The notes under the pieces were generated by a model that was not told where the DNA came from, ran no database searches, and was given only the letters and a program-made list of their open reading frames with translations. Shown here piece by piece: positions 2 to 11,221 of a stretch of DNA of 17,017 bases. The translations under genes and the position numbers were made by a program. Source of the DNA: Campylobacterales bacterium (GTDB taxonomy: Bacteria > Campylobacterota > Campylobacteria > Campylobacterales > Nitratiruptoraceae); the NCBI GenBank assembly GCA_027068245.1, contig JAMOUF010000024.1, forward strand, positions 1 to 17,017, in the 5' to 3' direction. The number at the start of each line of letters is the position of its first letter. Within the stretch, counting starts at the first letter, position 1.

Positions 2-145
2 ACGGCGGTCAGCCACAGGGCCTATGCGGACGCCCTGACCGCTTACAAAATCGTGCAGATGGCTTTGAAAAAGCTTCCAAAGGAGGTGAAGACCACCGAG
101 GATTTGATAGATTTCGCCAAACAGGGCAAAAAGCTCAACGCCTAA
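2..145 (+). CDS. C-terminal end of a DnaQ-like (DEDDh) 3'-5' exonuclease, partial
   Basis: A reading frame enters from the left edge and stops with TAA at 143-145, giving 47 residues. It contains SHRAYADA followed by a helix of the type TAYKIVQMALKKLP. The HxAxxDA pattern is what exonuclease motif III of DEDDh nucleases (the DnaQ / DNA polymerase III epsilon family) looks like near the C-terminus, with His as general base and Asp as metal ligand. The start and the first two exonuclease motifs lie outside the window, so the family call rests on one short motif; a different nuclease or an unrelated protein is possible. The gene converges on the minus-strand symporter and overlaps its last 11 nt, so no separate terminator fits between them. 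Confidence 0.55.
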   Translation, partial: TAVSHRAYADALTAYKIVQMALKKLPKEVKTTEDLIDFAKQGKKLNA

Positions 146-1334
146 ACACCAGTCTGTCTATAATCTTCGCCCCAAGCAGGTCCCCCCATACGTTTATCGC
201 CGTTCTAAACATATCCAAAAACCTGTCTACGGTGATAATAAGAGCGATATACTCCACAGGAAGCCCCACGCTGTCCAAAATAAGCGTCATCATAATAAGC
301 CCGGCCCCGGGTATTCCCGCCGCCCCAATGGAAGCGAAGGTGGCCGTTATGAATATGATTATCTGCTGAGAGAGGCTTAAATCCACTCCGGCAAGATTTG
401 CTATATACATAACGGCTATCGATTCATAAAGAGCCGTTCCGTCCATATTGATGGTGGCTCCCAAAGGGAGCACGAATCCAGCCACTTTTTTATCAACGCC
501 ACCCTTTGTCTCGGCAACCTCTATCGATACGGGAAGAGTTGCGGAGCTGGAGGCCGTGGAGAAGGCTACGATAACCGCCTCTTTGATTTTTAAAAAGTAT
601 TCATAAGGGTTGAACCTTCCTACCAGATAGGCAATAAGTGGCAGCGTAACTAAAGCGTGCGTAAAAAGCGCCGCCAGCACCGTCAGCACATAGCTGTAGA
701 GATTGAAAATGGGCTCGAGCCCGTTTTTGCCTACCGTATAGGCTATGAGGAAAAAGACACCGATTGGGGTCAGGTTGATGACCCATTTGGCTATTACCAT
801 AAAGGCGTCGTTTATGGAGTCGAAATAGGTATAAAGAAACTCTTTTTTACTCTTTTGGATATACAAAGAGGCTATGGCAAACAAAATGGTGAAAAATATG
901 ATAGGCAGTATGGCACCTTCGCTTAAAGCCTTGAATATATTTTGTGGTATGAAAGAGAGTATAAAATCCGAGAAACTGAGCTCCTTTGGCTCAACTGGCG
1001 GAGTATCTACCGTAAGCGCGCTCACTGCCCCGCTTCCCGGATTGAATATGTTAAATACAATCAGCCCAAGTAATACCGCAAGCGCCGTTGTGGTAAGGTA
1101 GTAGACGAATGCCTTGATACCGATGCTTTTAAGCTCATCGGTGTCGTTGAGGCCAGTTATCGCCACATAAATGCTCGCTACCACGATAGGGATGATAAGC
1201 ATTTTCAGCAATGAGATATAGACATCTCCGATAAATTTCAGCTCCACGGCCGCATCTTTGAAATATAACCCAAAGGCGATACCGGCAATTATCGCCAAAA
1301 GGGTCAGGTTTTCCAATGAGAGCAGCTTTTTCAT
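135..1334 (-). CDS. Dicarboxylate/amino-acid:cation symporter (DAACS / SDF family)
   Basis: A 399-residue inner-membrane secondary transporter, close to the usual size of GltP/DctA-type proteins. Members couple uptake of glutamate, aspartate or C4-dicarboxylates to sodium or protons. The family signatures are present in order: the serine-rich re-entrant loop AFSTASSSATLPV at 257-269, the PLGATINMDGTAL segment at 290-302 with the NMDGT cation/substrate motif at 296-300, a second glycine-rich re-entrant loop near 335-346 (SIGAAGIPGAG), and the last core helix with D370, R371, D374, R377 and N381 (DRFLDMFRTAINVWGD). Several hydrophobic helices precede these. The substrate cannot be read from the sequence. 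Its ATG overlaps the TGA of the upstream deformylase-like gene (ATGA), suggesting coupled translation as the last gene of the sqr group. Confidence 0.93.
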   Translation of the reverse strand: MKKLLSLENLTLLAIIAGIAFGLYFKDAAVELKFIGDVYISLLKMLIIPIVVASIYVAITGLNDTDELKSIGIKAFVYYLTTTALAVLLGLIVFNIFNPGSGAVSALTVDTPPVEPKELSFSDFILSFIPQNIFKALSEGAILPIIFFTILFAIASLYIQKSKKEFLYTYFDSINDAFMVIAKWVINLTPIGVFFLIAYTVGKNGLEPIFNLYSYVLTVLAALFTHALVTLPLIAYLVGRFNPYEYFLKIKEAVIVAFSTASSSATLPVSIEVAETKGGVDKKVAGFVLPLGATINMDGTALYESIAVMYIANLAGVDLSLSQQIIIFITATFASIGAAGIPGAGLIMMTLILDSVGLPVEYIALIITVDRFLDMFRTAINVWGDLLGAKIIDRLVFRR

Positions 1335-2122
1335 CTCAATCCCAAAATCAACGAAACTATATACATCCCAACAATCCCCGCCAAATACATGGCAGCCGTT
1401 CCCAACACATTGGCTCCCTGGCAGGAGGTGCAGTTTTTGTATTTCGTCGTCTCATATTTTGCATAAATAGCGTAAAAGAGCAGAACCGCAAGCTCGATGG
1501 CGGCCAGTGCCAGGTTGTGCCGTATGACAAACCGGAAGCTCTCAAAAAAAAGCGATAAAATAAGTGCCAGAAAATGGAGTACCATAAAAAATTTGAGGCC
1601 TTGTAAAATCCTGTCCTTTATGAAATAGGTGGGACAGGTATCCCCATAATCACCATGCTCTTTGAAAAACTTTTTCTGCTCCTTTTTTGAGAGCTTGTCA
1701 AAGAGATATCCTCCAAAAATCATATCGATTTTTCGTTGAAGTATTATAGCCTCTTCACCTTTTGCCGTATAAAACCTGTCATTTCCATCGATATCTTGAT
1801 ACATAATTTTCACTACCGGATATCTTGGAACGCTTAGGGTAGCGCCTGGCAGGCTCTCGTCGCTTTCGCTTGAGTAGAACAGCTCCCCCTCTTTTCCAAA
1901 TATGGTAGGGTTTATCATAATGAGGTAGCCGCTTTCCTGTTTTAAAAGCACAACCCTTATAGGTCTTCCTATCTGAACGGCGGCCAGGGCTTTTAAACCG
2001 TTCTCTTCCATACTCTTTTTCATATCTTCAATCAGCGTTTTAAGTTTCGGGTCTTTGAAGTCTCTTACATATCCGGATATCTGCAATAGTCTATGGTCCG
2101 GATAGGTCAGTAGTTCGGGCAT
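1331..2122 (-). CDS. Peptide-deformylase-like pseudoenzyme fused to a C-terminal membrane domain
   Basis: A 263-residue protein. Residues 1-155 align by eye along the whole peptide deformylase fold (PELLTYPDHRLLQ at the start, INPTI near 70-74, a final LFDKLSKKEQK helix), but the catalytic motifs are gone. Motif 1 keeps only the Gln (LAAVQIG, Q50). Motif 2, normally EGCLS, reads GATLS (94-98), losing the metal-binding Cys. Motif 3, normally HExDH, reads RKIDM (130-134), losing both His ligands and the catalytic Glu. Residues 176-195, 203-221 and 241-261 look like three membrane helices, with a CTSC pair at 231-234 between the second and third. The frame is open up to an ATG at 2185 inside the preceding small gene; I chose the ATG at 2120-2122 because AAAAGG lies just upstream and the family begins there. 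Deformylase activity is unlikely; the actual role is unknown. Confidence 0.8.
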   Translation of the reverse strand: MPELLTYPDHRLLQISGYVRDFKDPKLKTLIEDMKKSMEENGLKALAAVQIGRPIRVVLLKQESGYLIMINPTIFGKEGELFYSSESDESLPGATLSVPRYPVVKIMYQDIDGNDRFYTAKGEEAIILQRKIDMIFGGYLFDKLSKKEQKKFFKEHGDYGDTCPTYFIKDRILQGLKFFMVLHFLALILSLFFESFRFVIRHNLALAAIELAVLLFYAIYAKYETTKYKNCTSCQGANVLGTAAMYLAGIVGMYIVSLILGLR

Positions 2123-2162: not shown

Positions 2163-2342
2163 TTAGTGGTGGGATTTAGCCACAACCATAAGCATTTTTA
2201 GGTTGATGACTATAAAGCGGATAAACTGCCATATAAGGCATTTTCTCAAAAATCTTTGAAAAGGCCCAGGAACCATCGTTCCAAAGCTCTTTCCGTCGTA
2301 TGGTGTGATATTTTTTTGAACGTCCAAGTAATCTTTTGCCAT
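2163..2342 (-). CDS. Small membrane-associated protein encoded directly behind sqr (59 aa)
   Basis: A short gene starting MAKDYLDVQK and ending with TAA at 2163-2165. It begins 12 nt after the sqr stop and has a near-perfect Shine-Dalgarno (AAGGAG, 5 nt before ATG). Residues 1-30 are soluble and Gly/Pro-containing (DGKSFGTMVPGPFQ). Residues 31-55 form a hydrophobic, basic helix (about CLIWQFIRFIVINLKMLMVV), in which Q39, R42 and K49 recur on one face, as in a monotopic amphipathic helix; a transmembrane span is the alternative. There is one Cys, C35. I recognise no named family. Position and spacing argue that it is co-translated with sqr and may assist the membrane-bound SQR, but that function is inference. 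Confidence 0.75.
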   Translation of the reverse strand: MAKDYLDVQKNITPYDGKSFGTMVPGPFQRFLRKCLIWQFIRFIVINLKMLMVVAKSHH

Positions 2343-2354: not shown

Positions 2355-3830
2355 TTATTCTGGTATTAAAGTCCAGCCCGGTTTTAGTTGGGCTTTCCAC
2401 ATAAACAGATGGTGTAGAATGTGTTTTATCCAGTGGCCGGCCAGACCAACTTCCCCGAATGTATACTCAGGGTCTCTACCGGTTCCCGGATATTTTTCAT
2501 AGTCCGGAACCACAGGATAGACCGTAAGAGCCACCGCACTACCGTCAAGCAGGCCTTTACCAGCAGATGCCACACAAGCCGCTCCCATTTCGGCCATAGA
2601 GGCGTGATGCCCTTTTTCGGGAACCTCGTCAAGGCTGTATTTGCCCTGAATGACCTCGGTTATTGTCTGAGCTACCGTTTTACCGATAATTCCAGAAGGC
2701 ATACCGGTTCTTGGAGGAGCCGGTGTTATAGGCGTTCCGTTTACCGATTTTGCAGGTTTGCTTATCGGATGAGGCGGAGCGAATGCGATACCCACTGCGA
2801 ACATATTTTTGTAATCGGGGTTTTGATAGTATTTTGGCCAGTCGCTTGCCTTCCACTCTTCAAAGGGTTTTGGCGTATAATCTGCATCGACTTTCATAAA
2901 TCCGTTTGGCATAAATACTTTATCGGTAATGTCGTTACCCTCTTTATCGTATGCTTTAAGTCCCACACCGGTAAATGGCGGTATAAGCATAGAAAAGTCG
3001 AACTCCTCCTCACCTTCCGTTCCATCAAGCAGCTCGTAGGTTAGTTTGCCCTTTTGAACCTCTTTGACGTGGGCTCCGGTTATCCAGTCCACTCCTCTTT
3101 CAACGAAGAGCGATTCTGCGAGTACTTTGCTCGATACGATATGTCCGCCCCATTTGATATGGACGCCCGCAACGCCAAAATCTCCCAAAAACTGCTCGTT
3201 TGAAATCCATTTAATCTCCGCTTTATCCCTAACGCCGGCTTTTCTAAGTTCGTGCTCGATATTGAAGATATATTCAAACGCCGCTCCCTGACAGGTACAC
3301 ATTCCATGGCCCGTTCCTATCAGAAATTTCTGTTTTTCACCCTTTTTCATCTTCTCTATGGCTTCTTGAAAGTAGGTGTTGGCTTCGGCCGCGTGTCCGT
3401 ATGTACAAACAGAGAGTGAATTTCCCTCTTCCGGCCCAAGACCTGGAGTTGCCGCAAAGTTCAGTTTCGGTCCCGTTGCGTTTATAAGATAGTCATACTC
3501 TACCTCTTCTGTCTGACCCTGTTTGTTGGGGTCCGTATACTCTATGGTGACATAGGGTTTTTCGCTATCTTGTTTCCCTTCCGGATGGATGGATACCGCT
3601 TTTGCCTGTCTAAAATCAATCCCGGCTTTCTCGTAAACCGGAGCCAGCTCAAATACAACATCCTCAGGCGTCATCTCACCGACGCCAACCCAGATGTTTG
3701 AAGGAATCCAGTTCCATTTACTATTTGGAGATACGACTACCACTTCATGGTCTTTTCCAAGCCAGTGCTTGGCAAAAGTAGCAGCAGTATGTCCAGATAC
3801 TCCAGCTCCTAAAACAACAATTCTTGCCAT
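2355..3830 (-). CDS. sqr: Sulfide:quinone oxidoreductase family flavoprotein
   Basis: A 491-residue FAD-dependent disulfide-oxidoreductase-fold protein. It should oxidise sulfide to polysulfide/sulfur and pass electrons to membrane quinone from the periplasmic membrane face. The N-terminal GAGVSG (8-13) is the FAD dinucleotide-binding loop; INATG at 116-120 and NMFAVGIAFAPP at 342-353 are the later flavin-contacting segments. Cysteines are C142, C178, C180 and C419. C142 and C178/C180 (MCTCQG) fit the first two conserved Cys positions. Where type I enzymes have AVCFADMG, this protein has HASMAEMG (Ser at 411), with C419 eight residues later. The C-terminus (about 458-480, HWIKHILHHLFMWK) looks like the amphipathic membrane anchor. 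At 491 aa it is longer than classical 430-aa enzymes; type III, IV or VI is likely and I cannot choose. AAGGGG precedes the ATG. A related FAD oxidoreductase without SQR activity is the main alternative. Confidence 0.85.
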   Translation of the reverse strand: MARIVVLGAGVSGHTAATFAKHWLGKDHEVVVVSPNSKWNWIPSNIWVGVGEMTPEDVVFELAPVYEKAGIDFRQAKAVSIHPEGKQDSEKPYVTIEYTDPNKQGQTEEVEYDYLINATGPKLNFAATPGLGPEEGNSLSVCTYGHAAEANTYFQEAIEKMKKGEKQKFLIGTGHGMCTCQGAAFEYIFNIEHELRKAGVRDKAEIKWISNEQFLGDFGVAGVHIKWGGHIVSSKVLAESLFVERGVDWITGAHVKEVQKGKLTYELLDGTEGEEEFDFSMLIPPFTGVGLKAYDKEGNDITDKVFMPNGFMKVDADYTPKPFEEWKASDWPKYYQNPDYKNMFAVGIAFAPPHPISKPAKSVNGTPITPAPPRTGMPSGIIGKTVAQTITEVIQGKYSLDEVPEKGHHASMAEMGAACVASAGKGLLDGSAVALTVYPVVPDYEKYPGTGRDPEYTFGEVGLAGHWIKHILHHLFMWKAQLKPGWTLIPE

Positions 3831-3946: not shown

Positions 3947-4483
3947 TTAGCTTATGAAATTCAGATATTCGTTCTTGAAATCAACATACCTAAGCGCCGA
4001 GGCATAAAGTTCGTCAACCTCTTTTTGGGTAAGCTCTCTTACTACCCTGGCCGGACTTCCCATAATAAGGCTCCTTGGTGGAAACTTTTTACCGCCTGTC
4101 ACCAAACTGCCGGCACCCACGATACTCTCCTTGCCGATAACAGCGCCGTCGAGTATGGTGGAGTTCATACCTATCAAGCAGGCATCCTCTATGGTGCATC
4201 CATGCAGCATAACCCTGTGGCCCACCGTCACATCGTTGCCTATGATGGTGGGATAGCCATCGCTCATATCAGGTTTTTTGTAGTGTGTGACGTGTATCAT
4301 CGACAAATCCTGGATATTGGTTCTTTTTCCTATATTTATATAGTGCACGTCACCTCTGACAACGCAGCCAAACCATATGGAGGCATCATCTCCAAGTTCT
4401 ACGTTGCCTATGATAGTGGCGTTTGGGGCTATCCAGACATCGTTGCCCGTTTTTGGAAACCACTCTTTGTATCTTAGTAACAT
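3947..4483 (-). CDS. Gamma-class carbonic anhydrase family protein (left-handed beta-helix)
   Basis: A 178-residue hexapeptide-repeat protein of the YrdA/PaaY/gamma carbonic anhydrase group, which reversibly hydrates CO2 when active. Hexapeptide turns run from about 15 to 130 (IAPNATIIGNVELG, AVIGKESIVGAGSLV). The expected zinc ligands are visible: H64 (SMIHVTH), H89 (VTVGH) and H94 (MLHG). R43 and D45 (RGD) and Q58 (NIQD) match the conserved trimer-interface and active-site residues of Cam-type enzymes. A helical tail (148-175) caps the fold. The start codon overlaps the ppk stop by one base (TGATG) and AAAGGAG precedes it, so it is probably translated from the ppk mRNA. Many YrdA relatives lack measurable anhydrase activity, so the reaction is less certain than the fold. 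Confidence 0.88.
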   Translation of the reverse strand: MLLRYKEWFPKTGNDVWIAPNATIIGNVELGDDASIWFGCVVRGDVHYINIGKRTNIQDLSMIHVTHYKKPDMSDGYPTIIGNDVTVGHRVMLHGCTIEDACLIGMNSTILDGAVIGKESIVGAGSLVTGGKKFPPRSLIMGSPARVVRELTQKEVDELYASALRYVDFKNEYLNFIS

Positions 4484-6579
4484 CAGCTCTCCTTTAGCAG
4501 CCGTTTTGCCAGCTTTATAGGTTTTGGGGTTTTGTTTTTCTGGTGGGAGTTGTAAAGCAGCTTGGTAAACTCCTCCATCAAAATCTGGGAGTTTATCTCA
4601 GGCTGGCCCGGTGCTCTTTGCACTTTTCTGTACTCTCCGTTTGGCAGCAGCTCCCTGGCTTTTACGTTGTCTTTTAGCTGGATGTTCAAAATCTCCAGCA
4701 GCCGCTCGTCCAGCTCTTTGTCAAATATGGGCGTCATAAGCTCTATGCGTCTTTCAAGGTTCCTTGGCATCCAGTCGGCGCTGGATATGAACATGGTGGG
4801 GTTTGAGTGTTTGAAATAGAAAATACGTGCGTGCTCCAGGTATTTGCCAACTATCGATATTACCCGGATATTTTCGCTTATACCTTCGATTCCGGGCCTT
4901 AGACAGCAGATGCCTCTGATAATCAAATCGATTTTTACCCCTGCCATAGAGGCTTTGTAAAGCTCGATTATGATGTCCTGGTCCACCAGGGAGTTCATTT
5001 TGGCGATAATGTGACCCTCTTTGCCCTTTTTGGCCTCGTTTTGTATCATTGATATAAGTTTTGGTTTTATCTGTGTGGGAGACATATAAAGCGTATTTAG
5101 TTTGCCCTTTTTTGAAAAGCCGGTGAGATAGTGGAAAAATCTGGTGGCATCGGCGGTTATATCCTCCCTTGTGGTGAAGTAGCTTACGTCGGTGTATATT
5201 CTGGCGGTGGTTGGATTGTAGTTTCCGGTAGCCAGGTGGACATACTGTTTGAGCTTGTCTCCATCTTTTTTTATCACCTGGGCTATCTTTGCGTGGACCT
5301 TGAACCCTGGTATGCCAAATATCACGTGGGCTCCCGATTTTTCGAGCCTTCTGGCCCAGATAAGGTTGTTCTCCTCATCGAACCTGGCCTTGAGTTCCAC
5401 CATAGCCGTCACCTGTTTTCCGCTCTCGGCGGCTTCTATGAGAGCTTTTACGATGGGAGAGTTCTTACCCACCCTGTAAAGCGTCATCCTGATAGCCAGC
5501 ACATCCGGGTCCTTGCTGGCTTCGGATATAAACCTCACCACCGGGTCGAAACTCTCATACGGGTGGTAGAGCATCGCGTCTTTTTCATGGTCTAAAATAT
5601 TGAAAATCGGCTCGTTGCTGTCAAACGGTGGAAGGATTTTTGGAGTATAGGGCTCAAAGAGCAGGTGGGGGAAGTTTTTGTTGGATACTATCTCCCACAG
5701 TCCGGCAAGGTTTAGGGGCATTCTGTATTTATAGATATCCCCTTTGTGAACTTTGAGATGTTCGTTTAAAAACTCTATCAAATCCTCCTCGGCCTCCCTG
5801 CCGATTTCAAGCCGGACTATCTCACCTTTTCTTCTAAGCTTCAAACCCTCCTCCAAAAGCTCCATAAAGTCGTCTGCCTCCTCCTCCTCTATCTCGATAT
5901 CGGCGTTTCTGGTTACTCTAAAAGGAGCCGATGAGAGAACTTTGTATCCGGGAAAGAGGGATTCTAAGTGGGCCTGGACCACGGACTCGATGGGGATGTA
6001 GGTGTTTTCTATCTGTATGAATCTTGGCAAAACCCTGGGAATCCTCACCAGACCGTATCTAATCTCGCCGTCCTGGGTATCTTGGAGTTTCAAAACCAGA
6101 GCGAAGCTCAGGTTGTTTAGATGGGGAAAGGGGTGTGTCGCGTCAACGGCTATGGGAAGGATTACCGGATAGAGGTTTGAGTAGAAATAGTCGTTTATCC
6201 TCTTTTTCGTCTCATCATCCAGCTCATCGTAGTTTTTAAGGTATAGCCCCTCCTTTTTCAAAGCCTCGATGATTTCGAAAAAGGTATCTTCCAGCACCAC
6301 CTGCTCTTTATGCAGATACTCCCTGATAGCCTTTAGCTGCTCCAAAGGGGTCATCTTGTCCGGGCCGGTTACTCTGATGCGGTATTTGAAAAGTTTTTTA
6401 AGTCCGGCAACGCGTATCATATAGAACTCATCCAGGTTCGTTCCGTATATGGCGATAAATTTCAGCCTCTCCAGCAGCGGATTGGTTCTATCCTGCGCCT
6501 CCTCCAAAACACGGGTGTTGAACCTGAGCCAAGAGAGTTCACGGTTTATATAGAGTTTCGGGTCTTTTAGGTCCACCAT
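4483..6579 (-). CDS. ppk: Polyphosphate kinase (PPK1)
   Basis: A 698-residue enzyme, the usual PPK1 length. It makes long-chain polyphosphate from the gamma-phosphate of ATP, reversibly, and usually associates with the membrane. The four-domain architecture can be followed: N-terminal helical domain ([12 protein letters not shown] at 10-21), head domain (about 120-320), and two PLD-like catalytic domains. The autophosphorylated His is H429 in GFKVHAK, followed by HLATGNYNP at 448-456. The second catalytic His is H583 in KYLEHARIF, near [14 protein letters not shown] (600-613). R364 (IRMTLYR) and R409 (WARRLEKSG) lie at conserved nucleotide/metal-contact segments. AAAGGAA precedes the ATG. It is first in a two-gene unit with the gamma carbonic anhydrase and diverges from the beta carbonic anhydrase. 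Confidence 0.96.
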
Positions 6580-6650: not shown

Positions 6651-7283
6651 ATGGGTATCGAAAGGCTTATAAAACAGCACAGGGAGTTCAAGGAGCTACA
6701 TTTCAAAGAGTATGAGAAACTCTTTTTGGAGCTGGTGGAAAAGGGGCAGCATCCAAAGGTGCTATTTATAGGGTGCAGCGATTCGAGGGTGGTTCCGGAT
6801 TTGATAACGGGTGCGGGGCCCGGCGAGCTTTTCGTGTTTAGAAACGTGGGAAACTTCGTTCCCCCTTTTAAACCGGACAAGGATTTTCATGCCACGGCCG
6901 CCGCCATAGAGTATGCGGTAAGCGTGCTGGAGGTGGAGGATGTGATAGTCTGCGGCCACAGCCATTGTGGGGCATGCGAGAGTCTGTATAAGGATATTCC
7001 GGACAGATTGGAGCTGATTCATACCAAAAAGTGGCTCGAACTTGGAAAAAGGGCAAAAGAGGAGGCTTTGAAGTGCTGCTCGGATGATAAGGAGAAGCTG
7101 TTAAGGGCCACTGAGAGGATATCGGTAATCTTTCAATTAGAAAACCTCCTAACCTATCCGGATGTGAAAAAAAGAGTGGAGGAGGGGAGGTTGAGGGTTC
7201 ATGGATGGTACTACAAAATAGAGAGCGGCGAGATAGAGTATTATGACGATGAGAAGGAGAGCTTTTTGCCTATAAAACCTTGA
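6651..7283 (+). CDS. Beta-class carbonic anhydrase
   Basis: A 210-residue zinc enzyme that interconverts CO2 and bicarbonate; in an autotroph it would supply the carboxylating enzymes and buffer pH. The classical motifs are complete: C42-S-D44-S-R46, with the zinc ligand Cys and the Asp-Arg dyad, and CGHSHCGAC at 101-109, providing zinc ligands H103 and C106. RNVGNFVPP (64-72) and [11 protein letters not shown] (80-90) are conserved packing segments of the bacterial beta class. No signal peptide is evident, so it is cytoplasmic. Its stop lies 14 nt inside the convergent uvrB 3' end. It is the second, unrelated carbonic anhydrase in the window. Confidence 0.94.
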
Positions 7284-9868: not shown

Positions 9869-10336
9869 ATGAGACGAGGTGGTTTTACTATGATCGAGTT
9901 GATCTTCGTGATTGTTATTTTAGGTATTTTGGCTGCTGTTGCGCTTCCAAAGTTCATCGGTGTTAGCGAGCAGGCAAAAGAGGGTAAGATTAAAGCGTTC
10001 GTCGGAACTATGAACAGAACCGTTGGCCCAACTCTTTGGAGTAAGAGTATAACGGAAGGTAAAAATGGTGATATAAAATATCTAGCATTAAAAGAATCGA
10101 ATATCACTGATTATGTTGATTTACCCGATGAAATAAGTTCAGTTGATTTGAGTAACTGTGATGATCCAGATCAGAACAAAACTGTAATGCTTCTTGATGA
10201 AAATGCTATGGGTGGCAAGTATTATATTACTTGTAAAGATGGAAGTATAGCCAAAGCTCCTGAGTTTCATCTGTGGAAAGGTAGCCTATCAAGTTTGGGA
10301 AGTACTCCTGGAGGAACTGATAAGGCTTTAAACTAA
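9869..10336 (+). CDS. Type IV pilin-like protein 1 (class III signal peptide)
   Basis: A 155-residue prepilin. The leader MRRGG is followed by FTMIELIFVIVILGILAAVALP, so prepilin peptidase should cut after G5 and N-methylate F6; the mature E5 (E10 here) needed for assembly is present. The hydrophobic N-terminal helix spans 6-28. The globular part holds two cysteines, C97 (LSNCDD) and C122 (YITCKDG), placed as in the C-terminal disulfide loop of type IV pilins. AAAGGAGA lies 5 nt before the ATG, the strongest ribosome site in the cluster, as expected for an abundant subunit. It is clearly paralogous to the next gene (KAF, RTVG, LWSKSI, SNC and CxDG blocks). Whether it builds a pilus, a secretion pseudopilus or a DNA-uptake fibre is not visible. 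Confidence 0.88.
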   Translation: MRRGGFTMIELIFVIVILGILAAVALPKFIGVSEQAKEGKIKAFVGTMNRTVGPTLWSKSITEGKNGDIKYLALKESNITDYVDLPDEISSVDLSNCDDPDQNKTVMLLDENAMGGKYYITCKDGSIAKAPEFHLWKGSLSSLGSTPGGTDKALN

Positions 10337-10345
10337 TCGCATATT

Positions 10346-10792
10346 GTGAAGACAGCATTTACGTTAGCTGAAATAGTCTTCATAATAATTGTTCTCGGGA
10401 TATTAGCCGCTGTGGCTGTCCCGAGGTATTTTTATGTTGAAAAACAGGCTCAGGAAAATATCGTTAAAGCTTTTACCGCAACACTTTACCGAACCGTCGG
10501 TCACTCTCTTTGGTCCAAATCTATCTCAAGTGGAAAATTGGGTTCTATAAAAAGTGATGATGATGGTGATGGTGGAAAGTTTTTCGGTAAAAGTTTGGAA
10601 GAATACATAACTATTCCAAAATATTTCGATAAAGAGAGTGTCGATTTTAGCAACTGTGCCTCTCCTGGCACACTGGCTCAGCCGTTTATAGAAAAAAGTG
10701 AAATAGGTGAGTACAACATCTTTTGCCGTGACGGAAACAGCTCGACCGCCCCTTATTTTACGGTAAGTAAAGAGAATAGATACCAGTTTTAA
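10346..10792 (+). CDS. Type IV pilin-like protein 2, GTG start, paralogue of pilin 1
   Basis: A 148-residue prepilin starting at GTG (10346-10348); no better upstream start exists and the ribosome site is poor (AAGG about 20 nt away), so expression is probably low or coupled. The leader is KTA followed by FTLAEIVFIIIVLGILAAVAVP, with Ala instead of Gly at the cleavage site and mature E5 kept (E9 here). It shares with pilin 1 the blocks KAF (41-43), RTVGHSLWSKSI (49-60), FSNC (101-104, C104) and IFCRDG (125-130, C127). It carries an extra acidic loop, DDDGDG at 71-76, that fits the DxDxDG pattern of calcium-binding loops. It is likely a minor pilin that arose by tandem duplication and then diverged. 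Confidence 0.85.
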   Translation: MKTAFTLAEIVFIIIVLGILAAVAVPRYFYVEKQAQENIVKAFTATLYRTVGHSLWSKSISSGKLGSIKSDDDGDGGKFFGKSLEEYITIPKYFDKESVDFSNCASPGTLAQPFIEKSEIGEYNIFCRDGNSSTAPYFTVSKENRYQF

Positions 10793-10801
10793 GAGACAAT
10801 A

Positions 10802-11221
10802 ATGAAAAAATCGTTTACCATAATCGAACTTATCTTTGTCATCGTTGTTTTAGGAATTATTGCAGCTGTTGCGCTTCCAAAATTTAGTGAAAACTTGAAA
10901 CAGGCAAATATCTCCAAAGCACAGTCGAAAGTAACCGCCATAAGAAGTGCGATACAGGTTTATAAAAACAAACATATACTTCTTGGTGACGAGACCCCTT
11001 ACCCGGACTCACTGACAGATACCAAACCCTTTGACGTTATACTCTCTCCTGGGGTTGAAGAGGGGAGTGATGCCGGTGAATGGGAGGATTTGGGCAATGA
11101 AAAGTATAAATTTCATATCTCGGATGATGAATACGCCGTATTTGAATACAACAATACTGAAGGAACTTTCGAGTGCAGTAAGAGCAGTTCAAATCCCTCA
11201 AAGGTATGTAACAGCTTTTGA
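10802..11221 (+). CDS. Type IV pilin-like / pseudopilin protein 3
   Basis: A 139-residue prepilin with leader MKKS then FTIIELIFVIVVLGIIAAVALP: Ser at the -1 position and mature E5 present (E9 here). After the N-terminal helix comes SKAQSKVTAIRSAIQVYKNK (38-57), typical of the GspG/PulG-like pseudopilin helix, then a C-terminal cysteine pair (C125, C136). It lacks the LWSKSI block of pilins 1 and 2, so it is a different subtype. AAGAGA precedes the ATG. Its TGA overlaps the priA ATG by one base, so it is translationally coupled to priA. I recall that C. jejuni has a pilin-like gene, Cj0683, at this position before priA, so this is probably the ancestral member and pilins 1 and 2 the additions. 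Confidence 0.87.
   Translation: MKKSFTIIELIFVIVVLGIIAAVALPKFSENLKQANISKAQSKVTAIRSAIQVYKNKHILLGDETPYPDSLTDTKPFDVILSPGVEEGSDAGEWEDLGNEKYKFHISDDEYAVFEYNNTEGTFECSKSSSNPSKVCNSF

What the first reader, a model, noticed from the sequence alone, without database searches (positions are those of the whole stretch)
1331..2122. Metal-less peptide deformylase pseudoenzyme fused to membrane helices
Seen: the whole deformylase fold is followed, but EGCLS has become GATLS, HExDH has become RKIDM, and motif 1 keeps only its Gln. All three metal ligands and the catalytic Glu are lost together, while the scaffold between them stays recognisable. Three membrane helices with a CTSC pair follow. Known: deformylases need these residues. 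Inference: the domain has been repurposed as a binding or scaffold module at the membrane, possibly recognising N-terminal formyl-Met or nascent chains without hydrolysis, or as a partner of its operon mates SQR and the symporter. I know of no described protein with this architecture.
Basis: partly seen in the sequence, partly recalled or inferred. Interest (0 to 1): 0.72.

Follow-up and report, generated by a model that had tools for sequence, protein, structure and literature searches.

The report
Dead deformylase beside sulfide oxidase
A protein annotated as an enzyme that trims new proteins has lost its catalytic metal site, is tethered to the membrane, and in sulfur-eating relatives of Campylobacter usually sits beside a sulfide-oxidising enzyme and a tiny uncharacterised protein, which suggests the old enzyme fold was reused in sulfide metabolism.

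Summary
The gene is on the minus strand (2122..1331, 263 aa). Residues 1-156 have a peptide deformylase (PDF) fold (Pfam 6e-33; PDB TM-score 0.90). The Cys-His-His ligands and catalytic Glu are gone. Among 163 distinct full-length relatives Cys survives in 2, the first His in 1, Glu and the second His in 0. The genome also has a normal def.

It is a Campylobacterota family under purifying selection, in 120 of 398 order genomes; 117 of these carry one sulfide:quinone oxidoreductase, SQR. Between sqr and this gene lies an unlisted 59-aa protein, "KSH", without Pfam match. KSH and this SQR co-occur in 191 genomes, with 4 exceptions each way. KSH lies directly upstream of at least 98 of 128 pseudo-PDF copies.

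Best reading: a dead, membrane-anchored accessory subunit of an SQR-KSH module; the fold would dock, and the conserved cysteines form a redox or sulfur site (inferred). The symporter link is not conserved. Formyl-Met recognition is untested.

The parts
1331..2122 (-). pseudo-deformylase with C-terminal membrane domain, 263 aa; its stop overlaps the next ATG (1334) by the sequence ATGA
1655..2122 (-). deformylase-fold domain, residues 1-156
   Evidence: Pfam 6e-33; model and Foldseek
1973..1999 (-). motif 1 remnant, residues 42-50 GLKALAAVQ (canonical GIGLAAIQ); Gln50 kept
1853..1867 (-). motif 2 remnant, residues 86-90 ESDES (canonical EGCLS); the ligand Cys is Asp88
1721..1738 (-). motif 3 remnant, residues 129-134 QRKIDM (canonical QHExDH)
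1634..1636 (-). Cys163, before the first membrane helix (Cys in 162 of 163 relatives)
1553..1621 (-). membrane helix 1, residues 168-190
1442..1516 (-). membrane helix 2, residues 203-227
1418..1432 (-). CTSCQ, residues 231-235; CxxCQ in 163 of 163 relatives (part of that set was found through this motif); cytosolic side inferred
1337..1429 (-). membrane helix 3, residues 232-262
2163..2342 (-). small protein called KSH here, 59 aa, ending VVAKSHH; ribosome-binding-like AAGGAG just upstream; no Pfam match
2355..3830 (-). sulfide:quinone oxidoreductase, 491 aa; conserved upstream partner
   Evidence: PDB match 3hyv E=1.2e-38

Best explanation
The gene encodes a catalytically dead deformylase domain fixed to the inner membrane by three helices. 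It serves as an accessory, docking or assembly subunit of a sulfide-oxidising module whose core is SQR plus the small KSH protein. Shown: fold, loss of the metal-site residues, purifying selection, conserved gene order sqr-KSH-pseudo-PDF, near-confinement to genomes with this SQR. Inferred: loss of activity itself; physical contact with SQR or KSH; cytosolic placement of the domain and of CxxCQ; that the conserved cysteines (163, 231, 234) form a redox, metal or persulfide site handling SQR's sulfur product.
For: Loss of ligands across the family: Cys kept in 2, first His in 1, Glu in 0, second His in 0 of 163; all kept in 9 of 9 canonical ones. dN/dS 0.00-0.16 for the PDF domain in the pairs listed. 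97 pseudo-PDF rows separate from 13 canonical rows with 100/100 support, and sqr-adjacent members occur in both large subgroups. Pseudo-PDF in 120 of 398 order genomes, 117 of which have this SQR. KSH directly upstream of at least 98 of 128 pseudo-PDF copies. SQR upstream on the same strand in 61 of 98 loci, a KSH ORF between them in 61 of 61. SQR and KSH together in 191 genomes, 4 SQR-only, 4 KSH-only. A DsrE/F-like gene directly upstream in 6 of 98 loci, gap 0-77 nt. Pseudo-PDF-specific near-invariants include R20, R130, K131, C163, C231, C234, Q235.
Against: 74 genomes have SQR+KSH without a detected pseudo-PDF, so the core does not need it. In 30 of 128 copies no adjacent KSH was found; neighbours there include recR/aroE, rpoN or a ribonucleotide reductase subunit. 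Co-occurrence was not corrected for shared ancestry. No complex could be modelled; no coordinates or PAE were returned, so whether the three cysteines meet is unknown. No expression or interaction data on the pseudo-PDF turned up in the paper searches listed below.
Confidence: 0.58

Rival explanations
1. Sulfur relay: the cytosolic CxxCQ (with Cys163) accepts sulfane sulfur from SQR and passes it to DsrE-like carriers or other acceptors; the dead domain is only the dock. (A sharper form of the best explanation, so the odds overlap.)
For: CxxCQ in 163 of 163 and Cys163 in 162 of 163; sqr neighbourhood; DsrE/F directly upstream in 6 of 98 loci.
Against: 80 of the loci were found through a C[TS]SCQ pattern, so the CxxCQ figure is partly built in; it is also invariant in the 45-row alignment found by full-length search. 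DsrE linkage is rare and within one group of the tree. The cysteines could equally bind a metal or be structural.
Confidence: 0.22
2. Formyl-Met or nascent-chain receptor: the domain binds formylated N-termini without hydrolysis and holds ribosomes or new proteins (such as SQR or KSH) at the membrane.
For: Gln50, Glu86 and Arg100 and much of motif 1 are kept; in deformylases such positions line or support the substrate site (recalled). A basic helix precedes the membrane part in the window's lineage.
Against: The kept residues are shared with canonical def and may only hold the fold. R130/K131 and Y/M/F at the second His position probably fill the old pocket (inferred, not seen in coordinates). 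The basic helix is not kept in the Sulfurimonas-type rows (by eye). Near-confinement to SQR genomes is not explained.
Confidence: 0.08
3. Regulatory or general membrane scaffold with no direct role in SQR chemistry; sqr adjacency is inherited gene order.
For: Copies in other neighbourhoods persist under similar constraint; 74 SQR+KSH genomes do without it.
Against: The arrangement recurs across both large subgroups and several families, and 117 of 120 pseudo-PDF genomes carry this SQR.
Confidence: 0.12

Closest known systems
Peptide deformylase, Def (PF01327; e.g. H. pylori 2ew7, E. coli 3k6l)
   Same: Whole fold and scaffold residues (P8, F22, Q50, N71-P72, E86, R100, Q129, D133, G137).
   Different: No metal ligands, no catalytic Glu, three added membrane helices with CxxCQ, association with sqr. 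Below the cut-off of each of the 6 NCBIfam deformylase models matched (best 74 bits against 190). Several public records still name it peptide deformylase.
Sulfide:quinone oxidoreductase (solved structures 3hyv, 3t31; probably type IV of Campylobacterota)
   Same: The partner gene is an SQR: the PDB alignment covers residues 3-302 and two of its cysteines align with cysteines of 3hyv.
   Different: The matched PDB entries are named as SQR; whether they hold other chains was not checked. I found no paper describing KSH or a pseudo-PDF as SQR subunits in the searches listed. Type IV is inferred from a review (PMC4584964, passages), not tested.
DsrE/F-like sulfur carriers (PF02635)
   Same: Neighbour of some pseudo-PDF copies; a cysteine-based sulfur-handling role is proposed.
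   Different: The Pfam scan of the window protein at E<=1 shows PF01327 only.

Membership tests
Peptide deformylase (active enzyme) | Deformylase fold / PF01327 domain | tested here: met
   6e-33, 114 bits against cut-off 22.8; Foldseek
Peptide deformylase (active enzyme) | Metal ligands Cys (EGCLS) and two His (HExxH) | tested here: not met
   Asp88, Arg130, Met134 in the window; across 163 relatives Cys 2, first His 1, second His 0
Peptide deformylase (active enzyme) | Catalytic Glu of HExxH | tested here: not met
   Lys131; Glu in 0 of 163
Peptide deformylase (active enzyme) | Metal-dependent deformylation | not testable with these tools
   needs an assay
Sulfide:quinone oxidoreductase (partner gene) | Homology to solved SQRs, cysteines kept | tested here: met
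   3hyv 1.2e-38; two Cys aligned; the third catalytic Cys (recalled) lies outside the aligned part
Sulfide:quinone oxidoreductase (partner gene) | Type IV by the published typing | not tested
   inferred from PMC4584964
Cysteine sulfur carrier or relay | Conserved reactive cysteines | tested here: inconclusive
   C163, C231, C234 conserved; reactivity and proximity not testable here

The most novel reading that the evidence does not exclude
In sulfur-oxidising Campylobacterota, sulfide oxidation by this SQR is carried out by a three-part membrane machine: SQR, a ~55-aa amphipathic KSH subunit, and a retired deformylase that docks on it and carries sulfane sulfur through CxxCQ into the cytosol.
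Probability: 0.2. Interest if true: 0.82.

Novelty: new variant of a known kind. Interest (0 to 1): 0.63.

Why it matters
Several records label this family peptide deformylase, which misleads def counts and reconstructions of vent Campylobacterota. More important, a review lists as unresolved which products different SQRs make and says there is no experimental evidence for the distinct SQR roles in these genera (PMC4584964, passages); two conserved, uncharacterised neighbours (KSH and the pseudo-PDF) give direct genetic and biochemical handles on that. It is also a clear case of a translation-processing enzyme losing its metal site as a family and being kept under selection in another setting.

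Tried and rejected
Sequencing or alignment error: rejected, the replacements are family-wide. Decaying pseudogene: rejected, low dN/dS. Replacement of the normal def: unlikely but not excluded. I tested 12 genomes with PF01327: 3 of 3 single-contig genomes with a pseudo-PDF (G117, G151, G024) have both; G016 has no pseudo-PDF and a normal def; 8 drafts, picked because one search had shown one match, gave no full canonical def. I put this down to incompleteness, unproven: G019 and G370 are 99% complete, and G358 (99%) has a piece at a contig start. Symporter partnership: rejected as a family feature. Distribution beyond the order: the phylum search (298 genomes, 71 with KSH) listed only same-order genomes; 207 no-match genomes are unlisted, so it was uninformative. 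Search with the C-terminal region found 27 proteins, all already known members. KSH model is weak (pLDDT 68, helix 36-58). Promoters 12 against 7.8 in shuffles, terminators 5 against 4.8: not used.

Literature: deformylase with pseudoenzyme, and with Sulfurimonas: 0 papers each. Sulfide quinone with deformylase: 2 papers, listing and abstract starts seen; 1 paper, listing; 20 of 66 listed; 9 of 9 listed; 10 of 43 listed; 7 of 7 listed. None of the listings pointed to such a protein. PMC4584964 and PMC10045233 were read as passages; the word deformylase occurs in neither. Subscription journals and unlisted rows are not covered.

Full report
OBSERVATION. The coordinates hold a 263-aa ORF on the minus strand. 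Its only Pfam match at E<=1 is PF01327, 6e-33, residues 3-149; the six NCBIfam deformylase models that match are all below their cut-offs. phmmer against PDB finds deformylases (best 2ew5, 5.4e-13). An AlphaFold2 model from a 45-row alignment has mean pLDDT 89.2 and pTM 0.67; the 50 Foldseek PDB matches shown are all deformylases, TM-score by target length up to 0.90 (0.51-0.54 by the full query, since only one domain matches). So the fold claim stands.

MOTIFS. The ligand Cys is Asp88; QHExDH is QRKIDM; motif 1 keeps L-A-A-x-Q. I compared 163 distinct full-length relatives with 9 canonical short ones. In the long set Cys90 is C in 2, His132 is H in 1, Glu133 is E in 0, His136 is H in 0, Gln50 is Q in 158, Glu88 is E in 163. 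The 9 short ones keep all. Two states dominate at Cys/His/Glu/His: T-R-K-Y (82) and D-R-K-M (58). The two members that keep Cys (P0045, P0046) have lost both His. Long-only near-invariants (at least 93%) are R20, R130, K131, C163, P164, D170, Y220, E224, C231, S233, C234, Q235, N238 and G241.

A FAMILY UNDER SELECTION. The protein search returned 46 members of this family among 53 hits, one of them partial. In the window's family 21 of 22 genomes have the long form; G016 does not. Among 398 genomes of the order, drawn evenly from a larger group, I counted 128 long copies in 120 genomes (my selection of listed rows with E below about 1e-38 reaching into the C-terminal part; G042, G046 and G335 are partial, and the row list ended near 3e-29, so weaker members may be missed). 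A scan of public species genomes with a CxxCQ pattern gave 164 relatives, of which 80 were returned; their titles name Campylobacterota groups (Sulfurimonas, Sulfuricurvum, Sulfurovum, Nitratiruptor, Hydrogenimonas, Nitratifractor and others) except one titled only bacterium. dN/dS for the PDF domain in the pairs listed is 0.00-0.16 (Nei-Gojobori; some dS are saturated). In a tree of 110 rows the 97 pseudo-PDFs and 13 canonical ones separate at 100/100 (midpoint root, for drawing only).

NEIGHBOURHOOD. I clustered ORFs of 101 loci (20, 80, the window); the pseudo-PDF was called in 98. SQR lies within three called ORFs upstream on the same strand in 61 of 98; several of the rest are cut by contig ends. 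In 61 of 61 the gap (160-386 nt between stop-to-stop ORFs) holds a small ORF of one family, here called KSH after its last residues. In the window it is 2163-2342 minus. Its profile hits 106 ORFs in the 154 loci then held plus the window, many loci overlapping one another, and one hit being a weak, longer ORF. A 16-row alignment has 15 invariant columns, ending K-S-H. Two members tested have no Pfam match; a wide protein search returned 1511 relatives, 120 listed, the named ones mostly hypothetical proteins.

CO-OCCURRENCE. Of the 398 genomes, 195 have KSH at E<=0.001 and 195 have this SQR at E<=1e-50. By hand-copied lists, 191 have both, 4 only KSH (G157, G239, G258, G360), 4 only SQR (G028, G123, G160, G243). 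Some KSH matches, notably in groups f16 and f23, are weak (1e-5 to 1e-16) and, where rows are shown for f16, most stop before the KSH end. The pseudo-PDF occurs in 120, of which 117 have SQR; exceptions G042 (only a C-terminal fragment matched), G258 and G360. 74 genomes have SQR+KSH without it. Fisher p is 3e-43 but ignores relatedness. By coordinates, KSH is directly upstream of 98 of 128 pseudo-PDF copies, 21-272 nt apart, in 96 of 120 genomes. I gave that script only part of the KSH rows: rows of most genomes without a pseudo-PDF, and six rows of pseudo-PDF genomes that lie on other contigs, were left out, and itself did not list its weakest rows; 98 is therefore a lower bound. In 20 further loci fetched around KSH with no adjacent pseudo-PDF, KSH follows SQR in 19 by ORF calling; in the 20th, L164, my greedy calling displaced the SQR ORF, and one search places SQR directly upstream. 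So SQR-KSH is the core and the pseudo-PDF an addition kept in many lineages.

OTHER SETTINGS. Copies away from sqr fall mainly in one 22-row group (100/95, with one sqr-adjacent row, L122). Labels over the 98 loci give a carboxymuconolactone-decarboxylase-like neighbour in 8 and a DsrE/F-like one in 6 (identities), the DsrE/F-like gene directly upstream with a gap of 0-77 nt. A second group lies near aroE/recR. The window's symporter recurs in three loci, the window included.

HOW IT MAY WORK. A hydropathy scan shows no hydrophobic stretch before residue 170, so the N-terminal domain should be cytosolic (inferred; no signal-peptide program was run). Three helices then put CTSCQ, between helices 2 and 3, on the same side as Cys163 and the domain. 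I infer that the dead domain docks on SQR or KSH at the membrane surface, with Arg130 and Lys131 replacing metal-site residues, and that the cysteines form a redox, metal or sulfur-transfer site. The KSH helix is hydrophobic with a large simple hydrophobic moment (uncalibrated), which would suit a surface-bound helix; that is a lead only. No coordinates or PAE were available.

KNOWN OR NEW. It fails the defining catalytic features of peptide deformylase, though it belongs to that fold and homology group. A Sulfurimonas review says type IV SQR is conserved in all sequenced Sulfurimonas and that types I and IV group together (PMC4584964, passages); the window SQR matches 3hyv best (type I by recall and the review), so I infer type IV. 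In Sulfurovum indicum, type IV and type VI sqr are reported up 2.07-2.32-fold during sulfur reduction (PMC10045233, passages); whether that gene is this SQR was not checked. No paper found describes a deformylase pseudoenzyme of this kind (open-access library, capped listings).

CHECK.

Noticed in passing
window 2163-2342 (-): Unlisted 59-aa gene (KSH), near-constant companion of this SQR in the Campylobacterales genomes searched and present with SQR but without the pseudo-PDF in 74 genomes; perhaps the more important find.
   Followed up: yes
window 135-1334 (-): Sodium:dicarboxylate symporter (PF00375) whose start overlaps the pseudo-PDF stop by ATGA; cluster in 3 of 101 loci.
   Followed up: partly
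window 3947-4483 (-) and 6651-7283 (+): A gamma-carbonic-anhydrase-like hexapeptide protein (below its cut-off) and a protein that looks like a beta-carbonic anhydrase (recalled motif), on either side of a polyphosphate-kinase-like gene (4483-6579, recalled).
   Followed up: no
window 9869-11221 (+): Three tandem genes with prepilin-like N-termini (FT..E[LI][IV]F[VI]I...G[IL].AAVA[LV]P[KR]), by eye.
   Followed up: no
P0045, P0046: Two divergent relatives keep the motif-2 Cys (ESCIT, EHCVS) with QRTINM in motif 3, perhaps an earlier stage of decay.
   Followed up: partly
L136:2536-5103 and 26 other loci: An M1 aminopeptidase (PepN-like) cluster near sqr, typically just upstream, in 27 loci.
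   Followed up: no
G007: One draft genome (79% complete) carries two SQR-KSH-pseudo-PDF sets.
   Followed up: no
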